Assembly (NCBI RefSeq): GCF_002155915.1
Contig: NZ_MUME01000020.1
Location: 1 to 64,000 of the forward strand
Direction of reading: 5' to 3'
DNA: 64,000 nucleotides
Source: Streptomyces thermovulgaris
GTDB lineage: Bacteria > Actinomycetota > Actinomycetes > Streptomycetales > Streptomycetaceae
Below the pieces are notes generated by a model that did no database searches, had not been told where the DNA came from, and was given only the letters and a program-made list of their open reading frames with translations. Both the position numbers and the translations under genes were made by a program. The first letter of the stretch is position 1, and each line of letters opens with the position of its first letter. Positions 2,848-9,870 of the stretch are shown here, one piece after another.

Positions 2848-4002
2848 TCAGCCGACGGGGGTGGCGGCGGCCCGCATGTCGAGGAAGTTCTGCTTGTAGG
2901 CGTCGTGCGGTGCCGCGCCCTCCAGCCGGAGCAGGGCCTCGTCGTTCTCCCGGAGCGAGGAGTGGTCCAGGTTGTGCGAGCCGGTGAAGGTCCACTTGGT
3001 GTCCCGGTGGCCCGCGTAGTTGCCCTCGATGATCAGGTACTTCGAGTGCACCAGATAACCGTCCGCGGTGTTGAGCCGGTACAGCTTCAGCCGGGGATGC
3101 CCCTGCATGATCCCGACGTCGTTGCTGTTCGCGTACACCACCTCCACCCAGCAGTTCTGGTCCGCCAGCGCCCGGAGTTTGCGCGCCACCGCGTCCCGGT
3201 GCAGGGCGAAGGCGCTGACCCGTATCACCGTCTTGTGCGATGCCGAGCCCACCGAGGTGTTGCCCGTGCAGGTCACGTTGTTCAGCACGTCGACCACGAG
3301 ATCACCGGTGGCCTGCGGGAAGAAGTAGTACTTCGCCGTGCCCACCTTGCCCTGGCGGAAGTAGTCGCCGTTCTTCCGCATGGCCGCCAGGTCGTTGAAG
3401 TACGACACGTAGGCCGAGTACAGCTCGGTGTTGCCGACGACCGTGTAGGCGTTGTTCCAGTACTTCTCCACGTTGAGGGAGGTCTGGTTGGCGGAGGTCT
3501 GGATCACCACGTCCTCCGCCTCGCCCGGGGCCCCGATCCGGGAAAAGGTGAAGAACTTGTTGTGGTTGATCGGATTCACCTCCGCGGGGGCGTCGGCGAT
3601 GCAGGCCCGGCCCGTGGTGCACACCCGCACCCACGAGCCGCCCGAGGTGTCGCTGCCGAGCGCGGCCCGCAGGCTCTGCGCGGCGGGCCGGTCCGCGTAC
3701 GCGGAGTCCAGCACGACCCTGACCTGGACGCCCCGCTTGTGCGCCGCGATCAGCGCGTCCGCGTAGTCCTGGTCGGTCAGCGCGTACAGGGCGGCGCGAA
3801 TGGTCCGCCCGCTCTGTGTGGCGTTGATCGCGCCGATGATGTGGTTCTTGACGGCGTTCTTCTGGGCCGTGGTGCCCCGAGGGTTGTTGAAGACCGCTCC
3901 GGTGACGACAGGTGCGGCGGCTTCCCCGGCAGCTGCCGCGGTGCTGCCCGGCGCCAGCAGGGCACCGAGCAGCAGAGCGGTTGTGAGGATGCGTCTGGTC
4001 AT
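2848..4002 (-). CDS. Secreted phospholipase D-like (HKD) protein
   Basis: A 384-residue protein with an N-terminal signal peptide (MTRRILTTALLLGALLAPGS, then an Ala-rich cleavage region). Two phosphodiesterase HKD motifs are present: HNKFF at about residue 147, followed by a TSAN segment, and HSKYLIIEG near 320, followed by the TGSHNLDHSSLREND segment. This pattern is typical of secreted Streptomyces PLD-like proteins. They hydrolyse phosphodiesters, though whether the target is a phospholipid or a nucleic acid is not determined here. A much longer open frame runs upstream, but the ATG at 4002 is chosen because it begins the signal peptide. It is transcribed away from the tRNA-like gene. Confidence 0.88.
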   Translation of the reverse strand: MTRRILTTALLLGALLAPGSTAAAAGEAAAPVVTGAVFNNPRGTTAQKNAVKNHIIGAINATQSGRTIRAALYALTDQDYADALIAAHKRGVQVRVVLDSAYADRPAAQSLRAALGSDTSGGSWVRVCTTGRACIADAPAEVNPINHNKFFTFSRIGAPGEAEDVVIQTSANQTSLNVEKYWNNAYTVVGNTELYSAYVSYFNDLAAMRKNGDYFRQGKVGTAKYYFFPQATGDLVVDVLNNVTCTGNTSVGSASHKTVIRVSAFALHRDAVARKLRALADQNCWVEVVYANSNDVGIMQGHPRLKLYRLNTADGYLVHSKYLIIEGNYAGHRDTKWTFTGSHNLDHSSLRENDEALLRLEGAAPHDAYKQNFLDMRAAATPVG

Positions 4003-4245
4003 GATGGATCGTTTCCCTGGAGGTGATGGGCTGTCCGCGGAGAGTCGGCAGTCTTTCAGCACCTTCTGGATCCGGTCGAGACCGGCGGGTGTGCTTGCGC
4101 GATCGGAGTGCGGCCGGTTCCCGGGCGGTCGTCCGCGGAGGCGGTGGCGCGGCCGGTGCCGCCACGGTTCCGGGCCGCCGGGGGACTTCGGGCGTCCTCG
4201 GAAGACCGGGGCCCAGCGGAGAACGAAGGGCAAGGAACGGCAAAA

Positions 4246-4266
4246 AAGTTGAGGTCTGATCAACTT
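4246..4266. repeat. 7-bp inverted repeat upstream of the tRNA-like gene
   Basis: AAGTTGA (4246-4252) and TCAACTT (4260-4266) are perfect inverted arms around a 7-nt spacer. It lies in an AT-rich pocket between the divergent PLD-like gene and the tRNA-like gene, so it could be an operator or part of either promoter. No regulator is assigned. Confidence 0.5.
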
Positions 4267-4281
4267 CAAAACGGACAGGAC

Positions 4282-4287
4282 TATGAT
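4282..4287 (+). promoter_or_regulatory. Probable -10 element for the tRNA-like gene
   Basis: TATGAT lies 11 bp before the first base of the acceptor stem, a spacing expected for a -10 box of a stable-RNA promoter. No convincing -35 hexamer is seen at 16-18 bp. Confidence 0.5.
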
Positions 4288-4298
4288 CCCCCCTTGGC

Positions 4299-4374
4299 AA
4301 GGCTGTAGCGCAGAGGTCGTCGCGCCCTAGCAGCAAGCTGGAGGACGTCGGTTCGAATCCGACCAGCCTTGCCA
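4299..4374 (+). tRNA. tRNA-like gene with abnormal anticodon arm (possibly GCA)
   Basis: The acceptor arms AAGGCTG (4299-4305) and CAGCCTT (4364-4370) pair perfectly and are followed by G73 and an encoded CCA. T8-A9, a GCGC/GCGC D-stem (4308-4311 with 4322-4325) and a GTCGG-TTCGAAT-CCGAC T-arm (4347-4363) are canonical. The anticodon arm is not: the best fold is CTAGC (4327-4331) with GCTGG (4337-4341), including one T-G pair, closing a five-base loop AGCAA. There is no U33. If read as an anticodon the centre is GCA (Cys). The total length with CCA is 76 nt. It could be a functional non-canonical tRNA, a tRNA-like regulatory RNA or a decayed tRNA. Confidence 0.72.
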
Positions 4375-4480
4375 CCCTTGTCCTGGCGGAAAGTTGACTG
4401 GCGTCGGTCCGTTCCGGGCGGGCGGAGGGCGATGCCGCCCTCGGCGAGCCGGGCACCGGCGATGGACCGGTGGAGTGAAG

Positions 4481-5614
4481 ATGACGCAGCCGACACCCGT
4501 GCGTTGCCCGGCGATCGAAGCCCCGGACGTCCCGCTCAACGACCCCTCCGGGCTGGACCCGCTGCTGGACCGGCTGACGTCGGCGCAAGCGGTCGAGACC
4601 GACGAGACCTTCCCGCTCGGCACCCTGTGCGCGGACGGACGCGTCGACCTGTGCAAGCAGGGGCTCGGAGCGGCCGGCGCCGCCCGTCTGATGCCCGTCG
4701 CCGCCACCTCGCCGCACGCCCGGCACATCCTGCTCGGCACCAACTCCCTCGGCGACGAAGGGGCGTCGGCGGTGGCCCGGGCGCTCGTCGACGGCCACCG
4801 GCTGCACACGCTCTACCTCGGCTGCAACCGCATCGGCCCGGAAGGCGTCCGCGCGCTCGCCGACGCGCTGTCGGCGGACGGGACCGTCCGCGCCCTGTGG
4901 CTCAAGCGCAACCCGGTGGGCGACGACGGTGCCTTCGCGCTCGCCGCGATGCTCCGCCGCAACACCACGCTGCGCACCCTCGACCTGGTCAACACCGGCG
5001 TCACCACCGCGGGGCTGCGCGCCCTGCTGGACGCCCTCACCAGCCGCCCGCACCCGGTGGAACGCCTCTTCCTCGGCGGGAACGGCCTGACCCCCGACGC
5101 CGCCGGGCTGCTGGCTGCGCTGATCCGCGAGGCGGGCGTGCGTGAGCTGTACCTGCCCGCCAACCACCTCGGCGACAAGGGCGCCGCCGTCCTCGCGGCC
5201 GCGGCCGGCTCCGGGCGGCCGGTGCGCCTCGGACTGGGCGGCAACGGCATCGGCCCCGCCGGGGCGCATGCCCTCGCCGACGCCCTGGACGGCATCGAGG
5301 CGCTCGACCTGGGACGGCCGCCGTCGGAGCGCAGCCTCGGCGCCCCCGCCAACACCACCGGCGACGAAGGGGCCCGTGCTCTGGCCGCCGCGCTTCCGGG
5401 CAGCCCGCTGCGCCGGCTCGAGCTGCGCCACACCGGGCTCACCGGACGGGGCGCGAAGGCCCTGCTGGCGGCCGTGCCGGACGACTCGCCCCTGGAGTAC
5501 GTCGGCCTGGGACCCGGGCTGCCCCGGAAGGTGAAGCGCTCCTTCGCCCGGCGCCTGCGGCCCGTGAGCAAGGCTCACCCCGACCTGCGCGCGATAGGAA
5601 GTGTCTACCGGTGA
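4481..5614 (+). CDS. Leucine-rich-repeat (ribonuclease-inhibitor-like) protein
   Basis: A 377-residue cytosolic protein made almost entirely of about nine 27-29-residue leucine-rich repeats of the RNase-inhibitor type, with the pattern LxxLxLxxNxIGxxGaxALAxAL (e.g. LHTLYLGCNRIGPEG and VRALWLKRNPVGDDG). The repeats run from about residue 80 to 350. Such folds are protein-interaction surfaces and no catalytic motif is present. The ATG at 4481 has GGAG about 6 bp upstream. The stop overlaps the GTG of the ankyrin gene (GTGA), the first of two identical couplings in a four-gene cassette. Inference: a recognition or sensor subunit of the MoxR/vWA system that follows. Confidence 0.85.
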   Translation: MTQPTPVRCPAIEAPDVPLNDPSGLDPLLDRLTSAQAVETDETFPLGTLCADGRVDLCKQGLGAAGAARLMPVAATSPHARHILLGTNSLGDEGASAVARALVDGHRLHTLYLGCNRIGPEGVRALADALSADGTVRALWLKRNPVGDDGAFALAAMLRRNTTLRTLDLVNTGVTTAGLRALLDALTSRPHPVERLFLGGNGLTPDAAGLLAALIREAGVRELYLPANHLGDKGAAVLAAAAGSGRPVRLGLGGNGIGPAGAHALADALDGIEALDLGRPPSERSLGAPANTTGDEGARALAAALPGSPLRRLELRHTGLTGRGAKALLAAVPDDSPLEYVGLGPGLPRKVKRSFARRLRPVSKAHPDLRAIGSVYR

Positions 5615-7443
5615 GCCCCCGCCCCGAACTCCCTTGTTTTCCGCCGGAGGAGGCGGCGTGCTGGCGGCGGATCCGCCGCTACGCGGTGCCCCGGCGGATG
5701 ATCGAGCGTGCGACCGAACGCCGTCTGGCCGGCGACTGGCGGGGGGCGTGCGCGGCGGCCAACGTGGACGTCGCCGTCGACCTGTCCGAGGTCGGCGAGC
5801 AGTGGGGCCCCGACGTCGCCGCGGCGCTGGAGGACGACCTGCGCCACCTGGTCCCGGACCTGGTGCACTGGCATCTGCCCCGGCTGCTGGGCGGACGGAC
5901 CACACTCGCCACCGGCCGGACCGTGGTCCTCGCCCGCTACCGGCCGGTGGAAGCGGGCGAGAGCCCCCGCACCACGCCGTACCTCCACCTCACCACGCCC
6001 CCGATGAGGGAGGGCCCGCAGCGGCTCACCCTGCGTTTTCGGACGATCGAGGACGAGCGGGCCGTCGGTGTCTTCGGGGACCGGACCGAGGACTGGCGGA
6101 CCGCCCGGCACCTGTGGGACGCACGGCACACCGCCGAACTGCGCGAGCGGTGCGGCGGCCGCGAACGGCCGCCGTTCTTCCACCCCGACGGCAGACCACG
6201 CGGTGCGGACGAGCTGCCCACGGCCGACCCCGGCCCCGAGGACGCGGTGGCACGGGCCGAGTGGATCACCCTGCTGCACCAGAGGGGAGAGGTCCGGGGG
6301 GCCTTCGCCGCGGCCGGGATCGAGGCCGACCTGACGCCTCTGCATGACCTTCCCACGTGGTCCCGGAGCGATCCGGAGCTGCTCCTCGGCAGGCGCGCGC
6401 TCAACCACATCCGCCTGGAGCAGGAGGTCCGCCGCCTGGCGGACGAGGGCGTCGGGAACCGCTTCCGCATCTTCGGCGACTGGTGGACGCACATCCTGCT
6501 GGAACCGGCGGGCGGACGCGCCGGGCTGCGGGTGAGGGCCGTCCACCCGGACAAGGTCAAGGACGTGCCCTTCCTGGCCGAGGCACTCTGGCGCAGGCTC
6601 CCCGACCTCGACCTGATGCGCACCGGCGGAGTCGAGCCGGAACACCTGCACCCGCTGGTCCGTGAGGCGCTGTTCCCCGCGCTCCAGGTCACCGACGAGG
6701 CCGCCGGACCGCCGGGTCCCGCCCCCCTCGCCCCCGTCCGGGTGAGGTGCCGCGGCGAATGGCACGAGGTGGGCTTCCGCAAGGGCGGACTGCTCCACAT
6801 GCCGCACAGCGACGAGGAACAGCGGCGCGAGCAGGCCCTGCGTGCGTTCGGCGGTGCCGTCGCCGGGTGCTTCGCCGTCCAGCAGACATGGACGTCGGGA
6901 ACCGGCCGGCTGCCGAAGGCACTGCGCGCCCAGCAGCGGGAGCTGTTCCTGCGCGCCCAGCACGGCGACACCCAGGGCGTGCTCGCCCTCCTGGACGCGG
7001 GAATGGACCCCCGGGCGCGCGACGGTGCCCGGCGCACGCTGCTGCACATGCTGCACCTGCTCGACCACGAGCTGCTTCTGCCCCGGCTGCTCGAGGAGGG
7101 CCTCGACCTGGAGGCCCGGGACCACCGGGAGCGCACACCGCTGTTCACGGCGGTCAACGACGGCGGTTCCAGGGCCCTCGTGGAGGCGTTCCTCGCCGCC
7201 GGCGCCCGGATCGACGTGGTCGACCACCAGGAGTTCTCGCTGGCCCAGATCATCCGTCGGTACAAGCGTTCCGACCTGGCCTTCCTGCGGCAGCGCGTGC
7301 TCGAGGAACATCCGGGCATCGGCGCCGACTGGTGGGAGGAGATGATGGACGACGCCGAGGAGGACGAGGCGTACGTCTACGAGAACCTGGGCGGCGAGGA
7401 CGCCAAGGACGACGAGGACGACGGCGAGGGCGAGGACTCGTGA
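5611..7443 (+). CDS. Large protein with C-terminal ankyrin repeats and acidic tail
   Basis: A 610-residue protein. Residues 1 to about 440 form an N-terminal region that I do not recognise. About 450-580 hold three to four ankyrin-type repeats (for example FLRAQHGDTQGVLALLDAGMDPRARDG and HRERTPLFTAVNDGGSRALVEAFLAAGA). The C-terminal 35 residues are strongly acidic, with runs of Asp and Glu. There is no signal peptide or membrane segment. The GTG start overlaps the LRR gene stop by four bases, and its own stop overlaps the GTG of the ATPase gene in the same way, so synthesis of the first three proteins is linked. Inference: an adaptor that delivers clients to, or regulates, the MoxR ATPase. 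Confidence 0.8.
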   Translation: MSPRPELPCFPPEEAACWRRIRRYAVPRRMIERATERRLAGDWRGACAAANVDVAVDLSEVGEQWGPDVAAALEDDLRHLVPDLVHWHLPRLLGGRTTLATGRTVVLARYRPVEAGESPRTTPYLHLTTPPMREGPQRLTLRFRTIEDERAVGVFGDRTEDWRTARHLWDARHTAELRERCGGRERPPFFHPDGRPRGADELPTADPGPEDAVARAEWITLLHQRGEVRGAFAAAGIEADLTPLHDLPTWSRSDPELLLGRRALNHIRLEQEVRRLADEGVGNRFRIFGDWWTHILLEPAGGRAGLRVRAVHPDKVKDVPFLAEALWRRLPDLDLMRTGGVEPEHLHPLVREALFPALQVTDEAAGPPGPAPLAPVRVRCRGEWHEVGFRKGGLLHMPHSDEEQRREQALRAFGGAVAGCFAVQQTWTSGTGRLPKALRAQQRELFLRAQHGDTQGVLALLDAGMDPRARDGARRTLLHMLHLLDHELLLPRLLEEGLDLEARDHRERTPLFTAVNDGGSRALVEAFLAAGARIDVVDHQEFSLAQIIRRYKRSDLAFLRQRVLEEHPGIGADWWEEMMDDAEEDEAYVYENLGGEDAKDDEDDGEGEDS

Positions 7444-8645
7444 GCACCACCCCCACCTCCCGCACCGGGCCGGGACCGCTGGCCGCCGCGGACGACCTCC
7501 TCGACAGGCTGCGCGCCCGGCGGACCGAGCCCGCCACCAGCCCCCAGCTGGAGGCGCTCGCCCTGGCCGTGACGGCCAATCAGCCCGTTCTGCTGTGGGG
7601 CGAACCGGGCATCGGCAAGTCGGCCGGCCTGGAGCAGCTCGCCGCCGGACTCGGCCTTCACCTGGAGACGGTCATCGCCAGCGTGCACGAGCCGTCGGAC
7701 TTCGCCGGACTGCCGATCGTCGGGGACGACCCGGCCGCGACCGGTGTCCCGATGGCCCCGCCCGACTGGGCGGTCCGGCTCACCCGCGCCGGACAGGGCC
7801 TGCTCTTCTTCGACGAGCTGTCCTCCGCGCCACCGGCCGTGCAGGCGGCGCTGCTGCGTGTCGTGCTCGAACGCCGGGTCGGCAGCCTCGTCCTGCCCGA
7901 GGCGGTGCGCATCGTCGCCGCCGCCAACCCGCCGTCGAGCGCCGCGGACGGCTGGCATCTCAGCCCGCCGCTCGCCAACCGCTTCATCCACCTCACCTGG
8001 ACCCACGACCCCGCCACGGTCGCGCGCGGCATGGCCGGCACCTGGCCCGAGGTGGCCATCCCCGTGGTCGACCCGGCCAAGGTGCCCGGTGCCGTCGCTC
8101 GGGCCCGCGGCGCCGTCTCCGGTTTCCTCACGGCCCGCCCGGGCCTGGTCCACCACATCCCCGCCGACGCCGAGAGCCGGGGCCGGGCATGGCCGTCCCC
8201 GCGGACCTGGGAGATGGCGCTGCGGCTGCTCGCGACGGGATACGCGGCCGGCGTCGGCCGCGAGGCACTGGCCGCCGCGCTCACCGGCGCCGTCGGGGAC
8301 GGCGCGGGCATCGAACTGCTGTCGTATCTGGAGCACCTCGACCTGCCGGACCCCGAGCGGGTCCTCGCCGATCCCGACGCCTTCGCCCTGCCCCAGCGCG
8401 GCGACCGGCAGCTGGCCTTCCTCATCGCGGTGGTCGCCGCGATCCAGGGAAACCTCACCCGGCCCCGCTGGGAGGCCGGCTGGGCGGTCCTGGCCAAGGC
8501 CGTGGAAGCGGGCGTGCCCGACGTGGCCGCCCGGGCCGCCACCGACCTCGCGGCGATGCGCCAACTGGACTGGCCCGTGCCCCCCGGCATCGACGGATTC
8601 CTGGAACTGCTGCAGATGTCCGGGGCCCTGCCCGGCGGCCGGTGA
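7440..8645 (+). CDS. MoxR-type AAA+ ATPase
   Basis: A 401-residue AAA+ ATPase. Walker A is GEPGIGKS (about residues 56-63), Walker B is LLFFDELSS (about 121-129), and sensor-1 is AANPPSS. A C-terminal helical lid domain follows. This layout is typical of MoxR ATPases that work with a partner carrying a von Willebrand factor A domain, and such a partner is encoded next. The GTG start overlaps the ankyrin gene stop. The enzyme probably uses ATP to remodel or activate client proteins; the client is unknown but the LRR and ankyrin partners are candidates. The downstream gene begins after 34 bp. Confidence 0.88.
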   Translation: MSTTPTSRTGPGPLAAADDLLDRLRARRTEPATSPQLEALALAVTANQPVLLWGEPGIGKSAGLEQLAAGLGLHLETVIASVHEPSDFAGLPIVGDDPAATGVPMAPPDWAVRLTRAGQGLLFFDELSSAPPAVQAALLRVVLERRVGSLVLPEAVRIVAAANPPSSAADGWHLSPPLANRFIHLTWTHDPATVARGMAGTWPEVAIPVVDPAKVPGAVARARGAVSGFLTARPGLVHHIPADAESRGRAWPSPRTWEMALRLLATGYAAGVGREALAAALTGAVGDGAGIELLSYLEHLDLPDPERVLADPDAFALPQRGDRQLAFLIAVVAAIQGNLTRPRWEAGWAVLAKAVEAGVPDVAARAATDLAAMRQLDWPVPPGIDGFLELLQMSGALPGGR

Positions 8646-8679
8646 GGTCCGAGGGCACGAAGGAGGGCATGCAGGGGGC

Positions 8680-9870
8680 ATGAGGGAATCCCGCGGGGAC
8701 CTGGACATGACCAAACTGCTCGCCGCCCGCTACCGGGCGGCGAGCGACCGGCCCTATCTGGCGTCGGCCCTGTACGCCCTGACCGTCGTGCCCTGCCGTG
8801 AGGTGCCGACGATGGGAGTGGACCGGCACTGGCGCTGCTATGTGTCCCCCGCCTTCGTCGACGCGACCCCCGTGGAGGAACTCGCGGGCGTATGGGTGCA
8901 CGAGGTGGCGCATCTGCTGCGCGACCACCACGGCCGCGCCGACCGGCTCCCGGCCGCCGAGCAGCGCGACTGGCACCGCGTCAACGTCGCCCAGGACTGC
9001 GAGATCAACGACGACCTGCTCGCCGACGGTCTGCGCCTGCCCGACGGACGTGCCGAGCCCCGCCTCTTCGGCCTGCCCGGCGGGAAGCTGTTCGAGGTCT
9101 ACCTGGAGCAGCTGCCGCCGCAGGTGCGGGGGCACGACTGCGGATCGGGAGCCCACGGCCGCCCGGTGCCCTGGGAGCTTCCGGGAACCGCCGGCCCCGC
9201 CCGGCTGGGCGAGGTCGAGGCCCAGGCACTGCGCCGGCACACCGCCGAGGCGATGCGCGCCCACCAGCGTGCCCGCGGCACCCTGCCCGCGGGCTGGCAG
9301 CGCTGGGCGGAGGAGGTCCTGGAGCCCACGGTGGACTGGCGGCAGGCGCTGACCGGAGCGGTCCGGGAGGCCGCCGCATGGGCCGGCGGGGCCGTCGACT
9401 ACACCTACCGCCGCCCCTCGCGCCGCACACCGGCGCTGCGCGGCGTCGTCCTGCCGAGCCTGCGCCGTCCGCTGCCCCGGGTGGCCGTCGTCATCGACAC
9501 CTCGGGCTCGATGGGCGAGGCGGAACTCGCGGCCGCCCTGGGAGAGGTGACGGGCGTGCTGCGCGAGGTCGGCATCCAGGGCAACCGCGTCACCGTTCTC
9601 GCGTGCGACGCCGATGTGCACGCCGTGTCCCGGGTGACGGCCACCGAGCAGATCGGCCTCGCCGGCGGCGGCGGCACGGACATGCGGGTCGGGATCGACG
9701 CCGCGCTCGCGGCACGGGACCGCCCGTCCATCGTCGTCGTCCTCACCGACGGCCTCACGCCCTGGCCCGACGAGATCCCCTCCTGCCGTCTCATCGCGGC
9801 CCTGATCGGCTCCGCGGCACCGCAGCCTCCGAGCTGGGTGGAGACGGTACGCATCCCCCTCCCCGCCTGA
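8680..9870 (+). CDS. vWA-domain putative zinc metallopeptidase (DUF2201-like)
   Basis: A 396-residue protein. The N-terminal half carries a zinc-protease-like HEVAH motif (WVHEVAHLLRDHH, about residues 70-82). The C-terminal part is a von Willebrand A domain with a MIDAS motif DTSGSMG near residue 273 and a later GGGGTDM segment. The combination matches the DUF2201 putative metallopeptidases usually paired with MoxR ATPases. ATG 8680 is chosen because AAGGAGG lies 13 bp upstream; an in-frame ATG at 8707 is an alternative. It is the last gene of the cassette and ends 12 bp from the convergent PhzF gene. Proteolytic activity is inferred only. Confidence 0.85.
   Translation: MRESRGDLDMTKLLAARYRAASDRPYLASALYALTVVPCREVPTMGVDRHWRCYVSPAFVDATPVEELAGVWVHEVAHLLRDHHGRADRLPAAEQRDWHRVNVAQDCEINDDLLADGLRLPDGRAEPRLFGLPGGKLFEVYLEQLPPQVRGHDCGSGAHGRPVPWELPGTAGPARLGEVEAQALRRHTAEAMRAHQRARGTLPAGWQRWAEEVLEPTVDWRQALTGAVREAAAWAGGAVDYTYRRPSRRTPALRGVVLPSLRRPLPRVAVVIDTSGSMGEAELAAALGEVTGVLREVGIQGNRVTVLACDADVHAVSRVTATEQIGLAGGGGTDMRVGIDAALAARDRPSIVVVLTDGLTPWPDEIPSCRLIAALIGSAAPQPPSWVETVRIPLPA

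What the first reader, a model, noticed from the sequence alone, without database searches (positions are those of the whole stretch)
4481..9870. Coupled LRR-ankyrin-MoxR-vWA/peptidase cassette
Four genes in a row, three joined by identical 4-bp GTGA overlaps, encode two repeat-protein scaffolds (leucine-rich and ankyrin), a MoxR AAA+ ATPase and a HEVAH-plus-MIDAS protein. MoxR-vWA pairs are known chaperone or conflict-system cores (established for the family). The strict coupling to one LRR and one ankyrin protein suggests a dedicated recognition-effector machine, perhaps sensing a ligand or protein and triggering proteolysis or remodelling. The ankyrin protein's 440-residue N-terminal region is unrecognised.
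Basis: partly seen in the sequence, partly recalled or inferred. Interest (0 to 1): 0.78.

Follow-up and report, generated by a model that had tools for sequence, protein, structure and literature searches.

The report
tRNA-mimic RNA with LRR-ankyrin-MoxR-peptidase operon
A small RNA shaped like a transfer RNA, but apparently not built for ordinary translation, is encoded just before a four-gene repeat-protein, ATPase and peptidase operon in Streptomyces, and related operons elsewhere carry rows of such tRNA look-alikes with different anticodons, which points to an unrecognised RNA-protein system.

Summary
The four genes are as described: LRR 4481-5614, ANK 5611-7443, MoxR-type AAA+ 7440-8645, DUF2201 metallopeptidase-vWA about 8680-9870. 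It looks unlike an ordinary tRNA (acceptor helix 9-12 bp in its subfamily, poorly paired anticodon arm, A at position 33), and the genome has its own tRNA-Cys. In 392 Streptomyces genomes, 38 hold close ANK homologues; all 38 hold this RNA subfamily (as do 4 of the other 354), and in 37 of 38 it lies 76-1302 bp upstream on the same strand. Relatives of the RNA occur singly or in rows, with varied anticodons, before LRR-ANK-MoxR-DUF2201 or SDR-LRR genes in other families and in a second Streptomyces operon type: beside 29 of 30 SDR orthologues, 0 of 20 paralogues. Many family members (33 of 35 single-RNA loci fetched) have no such neighbour. I propose an RNA-protein surveillance machine in which tRNA mimics are bait or cofactor for LRR/ANK/SDR proteins controlling a MoxR-peptidase effector. 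Linkage is shown; mechanism is inferred (about 0.3).

The parts
4282..4287 (+). TATGAT, -10 promoter element of the RNA
   Evidence: TATGAT exact in 44 of 47 distinct upstream sequences of the RNA subfamily (5/6 in two, 4/6 in one), always 8-10 nt before the conserved CAAGG; implies transcription starting at or near the 5' end of the RNA (inferred). No convincing -35 box.
4295..4374 (+). tRNA-like RNA gene (tRNA mimic), about 80 nt, 11-bp acceptor helix 4295-4305/4364-4374
   Evidence: ARAGORN 4299-4374 'tRNA-Cys gca'; Rfam tRNA 44.6 bits, the lowest of 57 tRNA hits in this genome; fold -39.8 kcal/mol, z -3.4; R1 4294-4377 107 bits, R2 4298-4371 84.4 bits (this sequence is in both models)
4481..5614 (+). 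LRR protein, 377 aa
   Evidence: PF13516 83.4 bits, 4 stretches; 76-88% identity in the 8 loci
5611..7443 (+). ANK protein, 610 aa: unassigned N-terminal region of about 440 aa, ankyrin repeats about 446-540, acidic tail
   Evidence: GTG start in a GTGA overlap with the LRR stop
7440..8645 (+). MoxR-type AAA+ ATPase, 401 aa
   Evidence: AAA_5 31.1 bits, AAA_3 24.0; 85-92% identity in the 8 loci; GTGA overlap with ANK
8680..9870 (+). DUF2201 protein: HEVAH metallopeptidase-like domain plus vWA (DTSGSM), 396 aa from the assumed ATG at 8680
   Evidence: PF13203 95.8 bits, PF09967 74.5 bits; 77-89% identity in the 8 loci

Best explanation
Anatomy (about 0.9): this is a five-part RNA-protein operon, a short tRNA-mimic RNA with its own promoter followed by LRR, ankyrin, MoxR AAA+ and DUF2201 vWA-metallopeptidase genes. 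It belongs to a wider group in which one or several tRNA mimics with different anticodons sit beside LRR or SDR genes and MoxR-DUF2201 type genes. Mechanism (inferred, about 0.3): the RNAs present tRNA anticodon arms on a common scaffold that is not used in bulk translation. The LRR, ANK (or SDR) proteins hold or inspect this RNA. When it is cut, modified or captured, for example by an anticodon-loop nuclease of a competitor, plasmid or phage, the complex changes state and lets the MoxR ATPase drive the vWA-metallopeptidase, which cleaves or remodels targets. Shown: RNA conservation, cloverleaf, promoter box, genomic linkage, intact catalytic motifs. Not shown: transcription, RNA binding, sensing, proteolysis.
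For: All 38 genomes of 392 with a close ANK homologue (E<=1e-40) carry an RNA of at least 84 bits with R1, against 4 of 354 without (G248, G305, G371, G377; the 84-bit line was chosen afterwards at a gap). In 37 of the 38 it lies 76-1302 bp upstream on the same strand; in G186 RNA and ANK are on different contigs (coordinates, subtraction). The 30 best RNA hits (one is the window) all have an LRR homologue starting about 20-110 nt downstream. TATGAT in 44 of 47. RNA columns 93% identical while ANK proteins of the same loci fall to 56%. Independent linkage: RNAs before SDR-LRR-ANK-MoxR-DUF2201 (L186, L190), LRR-ANK-ANK-MoxR-DUF2201 (L188), LRR-ANK (L189) in family f19, and before SDR-LRR2 with AAA-DUF2201b beside them in Streptomyces (L134, L196, L198) and family f3 (L122). 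Reverse test: RNA within 1.5 kb of 29 of 30 SDR orthologues (27 upstream; 26 with a hit of at least 66 bits), 0 of 20 SDR paralogues. Anticodon arm is the most variable region (mean entropy 1.43 bits; T loop 0.12, D stem 0.32).
Against: Many family RNAs are orphans: 33 of 35 single-RNA loci fetched (L071-L090, L106-L110, L125-L133, L135) hold none of 14 reference proteins; L076 and L132 hold ANK. RNA persists without ANK in G248 and without ANK-MoxR-DUF2201 in L094, and ANK-MoxR-DUF2201 trios exist without RNA (7 loci). Arm mimicry is weak: with the anticodon masked, the nearest real tRNA arm carries the same anticodon for 13 of 54 distinct arms, 6.7 expected, 16 of 2000 permutations as high; only two arms (Glu CTC, Ala GGC) match a real 17-nt arm exactly, 18 of 54 a real 7-nt loop. 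The window-type arm has A33 and matches no real arm. R2 does not separate cleanly everywhere: ordinary-looking tRNAs reach 60-65 bits in other Actinobacteria and 69-72 in four f19 loci beside tRNA-Met (L192-L195). No neighbouring nuclease or RNA ligase was identified, no PADLOC system matched beyond generic AAA and ankyrin models, and both structure models were poor.
Confidence: 0.4

Rival explanations
1. Y-RNA-like particle: the tRNA mimic is a structural cofactor that tethers or gates an RNA or protein quality-control machine built on the vWA and AAA+ proteins, without sensing attack.
For: A vWA protein with a conserved tRNA-like RNA beside it recalls Ro60 and bacterial YrlA RNA (from memory); scaffold nearly invariant.
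Against: Pfam found no TROVE domain in the four proteins; anticodon diversity in the rows is not needed for a tether.
Confidence: 0.2
2. Working tRNAs for deliberate mistranslation or stop-codon reading, with the proteins as clients or quality control.
For: Many row RNAs keep a 5-bp arm, a 7-nt loop, mostly U33, and real anticodons; streptomycete tRNA-Pro variants for mistranslation are known (recalled).
Against: Window-type RNAs have A33 in 13 of 13 and a poorly paired arm; acceptor helix 9-12 bp; no common discriminator, because position 73 is usually inside the longer helix (read); the own genome already has 49 ordinary tRNA sequences by ARAGORN, Cys and Trp included; no synthetase gene was noticed beside the operons (not searched systematically).
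Confidence: 0.15
3. Cis-acting leader: the tRNA-like fold in the 5' leader regulates the LRR operon, like a riboswitch or a tRNA-triggered attenuator.
For: Promoter box just before it and the LRR gene about 20-110 nt after it; a conserved CCGGCG...CCGGTGGAG block precedes the LRR start codon.
Against: Rows of two to four RNAs, a Trp-type RNA downstream of the SDR or LRR genes, and many orphan copies away from any such gene.
Confidence: 0.12
4. The protein-only recognition-effector machine of the first reader; the RNA is a hitch-hiking tRNA relic or integration site.
For: tRNA genes are common integration sites (recalled); orphan copies are frequent.
Against: RNA near-invariant over loci whose ANK proteins fall to 56% identity; own promoter box; linkage repeated in other families and in a second operon type, absent at paralogues.
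Confidence: 0.08

Closest known systems
Allo-tRNAs and irregular tRNA polycistrons (Mukai et al. 2017, seen as passages of the review PMC7609411)
   Same: tRNA-like genes with lengthened acceptor domains, very diverse anticodons, some in polycistrons; some could not be aminoacylated and were guessed to belong to mobile elements or toxin-antitoxin systems
   Different: Allo-tRNAs have 8/4 or 9/3 acceptor/T stems and are reported from Clostridia, Proteobacteria and Acidobacteria; here the T stem is 5 bp, and the genes sit beside LRR, ANK or SDR and MoxR-DUF2201 genes. The review text has no occurrence of Streptomyces or Actinobacteria.
MoxR-vWA chaperone pairs (RavA-ViaA and others, recalled)
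   Same: Adjacent MoxR-type AAA+ and vWA proteins with intact Walker and MIDAS motifs
   Different: The vWA protein carries a DUF2201 metallopeptidase-like domain, and the operon carries LRR, ANK and a tRNA mimic
MoxR/vWA ternary conflict systems (Kaur et al. 2020, PMC7159879, passages)
   Same: MoxR and vWA proteins with proposed sensing and effector roles in multicellular bacteria
   Different: bpMoxR model below cut-off (19.4 against 27); no VMAP or beta-propeller model among the Pfam hits; in the main text 'ankyrin' is absent and 'tRNA' and 'LRR' each occur once, shown only in the reference list
Ro60-Y RNA / Rsr-YrlA particles (recalled)
   Same: A vWA-containing protein linked to a tRNA-like noncoding RNA
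   Different: No TROVE domain found; the RNA here is a full cloverleaf without an extra protein-binding stem seen in the folds; AAA+ and peptidase partners

Membership tests
Canonical elongator tRNA | 7-bp acceptor stem, U33, paired 5-bp anticodon stem | tested here: not met
   Window subfamily: 9-12 bp acceptor, one mismatch allowed, A33 in 13 of 13 rows of A1, arm pairing different from a 5-bp stem in most rows. Many row RNAs do have a regular arm.
Canonical elongator tRNA | aminoacylation and ribosomal decoding | not testable with these tools
   needs biochemistry
Allo-tRNA / tRNA-Sec-like | T stem of 3-4 bp in an 8/4 or 9/3 acceptor domain (allo-tRNA); 8/5 with long variable arm (tRNA-Sec) | tested here: not met
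   T stem of 5 bp paired in all cells of 40 RNAs (rows were preselected for at least 4 T-stem pairs); short variable region in A6
MoxR AAA+ / vWA pair | Adjacent MoxR-type AAA+ and MIDAS vWA protein | tested here: met
   AAA_5 and DUF2201 vWA above cut-off, AAA_3 borderline; motifs in 9 of 9
MoxR-vWA ternary conflict system | bpMoxR above cut-off with VMAP or beta-propeller partner | tested here: not met
   bpMoxR 19.4 against 27 bits; no such partner among the four proteins
Ro60 / Rsr-YrlA | TROVE domain | tested here: not met
   no TROVE match in the four proteins
Known defence systems (PADLOC) | system-specific model match | tested here: not met
   weak matches only, of ANK to PDC-M72A and Ankyrin and of the ATPase to RtcR-type models; none for LRR or DUF2201
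Peptidase | proteolytic activity of the HExxH domain | not testable with these tools
   HE(V/A/T)AH in 9 of 9

The most novel reading that the evidence does not exclude
A bacterial bait-RNA immune system: sets of tRNA mimics, each displaying a different anticodon loop on a scaffold kept out of translation, are guarded by LRR, ankyrin and SDR proteins, and attack on a bait by a tRNA-targeting toxin or phage factor releases a MoxR-driven metallopeptidase.
Probability: 0.28. Interest if true: 0.95.

Novelty: categorically new. Interest (0 to 1): 0.84.

Why it matters
tRNA-like genes of this kind are called ordinary tRNAs by gene finders (Cys, Arg, Asp, SeC or Ala for the same subfamily) or distort neighbouring gene models, so a noncoding-RNA family tied to a repeat-protein, AAA+ and peptidase machine would have passed unnoticed. 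If the bait reading holds, it would be a guard-type sensor for tRNA damage in bacteria; if not, it still makes a class of tRNA mimics and the little-studied DUF2201-MoxR pairs directly testable. Ten full-text searches of the held library listed no paper that by title or abstract describes this combination; subscription journals and preprints are largely absent from that library.

Tried and rejected
Structure prediction of ANK and DUF2201 from 9-sequence alignments gave poor models (mean pLDDT 60 and 43), so no fold search was run. PADLOC and NCBIfam gave nothing specific; PDB sequence search gave only ankyrin repeats for ANK and a weak match for DUF2201 (Ika8, E 2.5e-5 over 43 residues). The idea that RNA arms are copies of the cognate real tRNA arms was tested and is only weakly supported. 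A possible internal repeat in the ANK N-terminal region is not significant by BLASTP (13 residues, E 0.2). ANK-MoxR-DUF2201 trios were checked for an overlooked RNA: R2 gives nothing above 20 bits in L096-L102 and L111; ARAGORN calls a tRNA in 3 of these 8 loci (L096, L098, L099), none just upstream of ANK. No exact match to the D-arm pattern in viral contigs, no LRR match in phages, no plasmid covering 80% of ANK (9 records with partial matches). I rejected 'ordinary tRNA', 'attachment site' and 'chance neighbour' for the reasons in the report.

Caveats on my own tests: the rows of A6 were collected by a script that required at least 7 acceptor pairs and 4 T-stem pairs, so pairing in those two helices is partly by construction; the D and anticodon helices were not preselected by pairing. 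R1 and R2 contain sequences of the loci they later find. The 84-bit line for the window-type RNA was drawn after seeing the scores. Only the top 30 of about 50 SDR orthologues were scanned, and the 20 paralogues were picked from the next ranks (52-56% identity) plus the one in the own genome. Gene calls in unnamed loci come from my simple GC3 script. Whole-genome searches over 40 genomes used stricter filters, and one search listed only its best matches.

Full report
Observation. The window lies in an unnamed draft genome of 6.0 Mb whose named relatives are Streptomyces. The four genes exist as described. Two GTGA overlaps join LRR-ANK and ANK-MoxR; the DUF2201 gene follows after about 34 nt. 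In 8 of 8 relatives found with ANK in genome contigs the four genes stand in the same order, both junctions reading NTGA.

The missed part. ARAGORN calls one tRNA in the 64-kb window, at 4299-4374, and Rfam agrees (44.6 bits), the lowest of 57 tRNA hits in this genome. ARAGORN calls a tRNA at the same place in 8 of 8 relatives and in the five full-length homologues L012-L016 of the first genome search (L012 has the same RNA sequence and contig length as L005, so they are probably one genome), but with changing anticodons: Cys, Arg, Asp, SeC, Ala. Thirteen sequences align at 93% mean column identity, higher than LRR (89%) or DUF2201 (85%) and far above ANK (70%), about equal to MoxR (92%) (amino-acid columns). 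The 5' leader bases pair with the 3' end, giving 9-12 acceptor pairs in the subfamily. The anticodon arm is weakly paired and position 33 is A in 13 of 13.

Tight linkage. A covariance model R1 over 392 Streptomyces genomes gave hits of at least 84 bits in 42 genomes. ANK at E<=1e-40 occurs in 38 of 392, all within those 42. The four extra genomes are G377 and G371 (RNA near a contig end), G305 (RNA and LRR only, L094) and G248 (RNA only, L083). RNA and ANK are 76-1302 bp apart on one strand in 37 of 38; in G186 they are on different contigs. In G122, in the second copy of G054 and in L132 the RNA lies directly before ANK without LRR; in G269 the LRR is cut short. The 30 best RNA loci, the window among them, all have the LRR gene next. 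A TATGAT box stands 8-10 nt before the conserved CAAGG in 44 of 47, so the transcript probably begins at the RNA itself.

A wider RNA family. Second-tier hits (about 55-83 bits) share the D arm and T arm but differ in the anticodon arm. Some carry a regular Trp (CCA) loop. Forty diverse members support a cloverleaf: 93.7% of cells paired, 13 of 21 pairs with double changes; 0 of 500 shuffles reach four of the five measures, 44 of 500 the count of pairs. The acceptor and T-stem part of this is partly preselected; the D stem (90.0%) and anticodon stem (81.6%, 4 of 4 pairs with double changes) were not selected by pairing. Model R2 scores the family members used in building or testing at 63.9 bits or more and ordinary tRNAs of the own genome at 56.4 or less, but ordinary-looking tRNAs reach 60-65 bits in other Actinobacteria and 69-72 in L192-L195.

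Rows and second operon type. In the same-order family f3, ARAGORN finds two to four tRNA-like genes in a row with different anticodons (L119-L124). Five of these six loci hold a homologue of a protein without Pfam match ('MDAST'); the sixth, L122, holds SDR-LRR2, a double-AAA protein and DUF2201b. In family f19 the RNAs precede SDR-LRR-ANK-MoxR-DUF2201 (L186, two RNAs; L190), LRR-ANK-ANK-MoxR-DUF2201 (L188), LRR-ANK (L189, three RNAs) and SDR-LRR (L185, L191); L187 has a lone RNA in the genome that also holds L188. In Streptomyces a second type, with RNAs before SDR-LRR2, AAA and DUF2201b on the other strand and a Trp-type RNA further on, is seen in L134, L196 and L198, without LRR2 in the map in L197, and in part in L199 and L201. 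Anticodons called near 30 SDR orthologues: Ala GGC 11, Glu CTC 10, Gly GCC 9, Trp CCA 9, Asp GTC 7, Ser GCT 4, Cys GCA 3, Ala CGC 3, and one each of Gly CCC, Asp ATC and Val GAC.

Reverse test. Starting from the SDR protein (382 genomes, 344 with a hit of any kind, most of them the ubiquitous paralogue), the 30 best orthologue loci have an R2 hit within 1.5 kb in 29 cases: 27 upstream; L219 and L232 only downstream, L219 with a weak 29-bit hit upstream; L228 none; 26 have a hit of at least 66 bits. Twenty paralogue loci have none above 18.2 bits, and ARAGORN finds no tRNA there. Some orthologues with RNA lack LRR2 in the stretch fetched (for example L207, L208, L214, L215), so the RNA goes with the SDR gene even there.

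Results against. Orphans are common: 33 of 35 single-RNA loci hold none of 14 reference proteins. ANK-MoxR-DUF2201 trios of a more distant kind (ANK about 480 aa, 28-45% identity) have neither RNA nor LRR in 7 loci. Resemblance of arms to real tRNA arms is weak (13 of 54 nearest arms with the right anticodon, 6.7 expected, 16 of 2000 permutations). Structure models failed. No plasmid or phage form was found.

Interpretation. The linkage, repeated in different families and operon types and absent at paralogues, makes the RNA a component rather than a neighbour (my estimate 0.9). What it does is inferred. A near-constant scaffold with a changing anticodon loop, in rows, beside binding-repeat proteins and an AAA+/vWA-metallopeptidase pair, suits a displayed bait or a sequence-specific cofactor better than a cis leader, a decoding tRNA or an attachment site; PARIS and other tRNA-targeting defences (review PMC11455837, seen only as a search listing) show that bacteria and phages do fight over tRNAs. 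I give the bait model about 0.3.

Literature. Searches of the held library gave no paper that by title or abstract describes this combination. Nearest: irregular tRNA polycistrons and allo-tRNAs (PMC7609411, passages) and MoxR-vWA conflict systems (PMC7159879, passages). Ro60-YrlA, RavA-ViaA and the streptomycete tRNA-Pro mistranslation work are recalled, not read. The labels IleRS, DivIVA, EF-Tu, TerD, SWIM and Zn-ribbon in this report are my readings of translations, not call results.

Noticed in passing
window 3302-5905 minus strand (ORF of 867 aa); also C-termini in L081, L089: Antisense reading of the T arm gives the peptide GFEPTSS/GFEPASS, so spurious ORFs and false protein ends run through these RNA genes.
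   Followed up: partly
L084 (about 7121-7194) and L130 (about 6733-6806): A tRNA-like RNA of the family lies in two genomes at the same spot between genes that read as IleRS and DivIVA (labels by eye); orphan copies can have a fixed place too.
   Followed up: no
L119, L120, L121, L123, L124 (family f3): Rows of two to four tRNA-like genes sit beside a protein family without Pfam match that starts MDASTHFRERGALIT and near an MFS-like gene; a possible third operon type.
   Followed up: partly
L096-L101, L111: A more distant ANK-MoxR-DUF2201 trio without LRR and RNA, in Streptomyces and in family f3; possibly the ancestral form.
   Followed up: partly
L092 4169-6710 and L083 7322-8351: Related loci in which RNA-ANK (L092) or the RNA alone (L083) is followed by a gene that reads as TerD family (label by eye).
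   Followed up: no
window about 4455-4483 and aligned loci: A conserved CCGGCG...CCGGTGGAG block just before the LRR start codon could form a small hairpin at the ribosome-binding site.
   Followed up: no
L168:53-126 (G000:C126, about 7952-8025): The only tRNA-Leu (CAA) that ARAGORN found in the fetched own-genome tRNA loci has a short variable region, unlike the other Leu tRNAs.
   Followed up: no
L079, about 600 bp from the RNA: A family RNA with loop CATCATG lies near an EF-Tu gene (label by eye).
   Followed up: no
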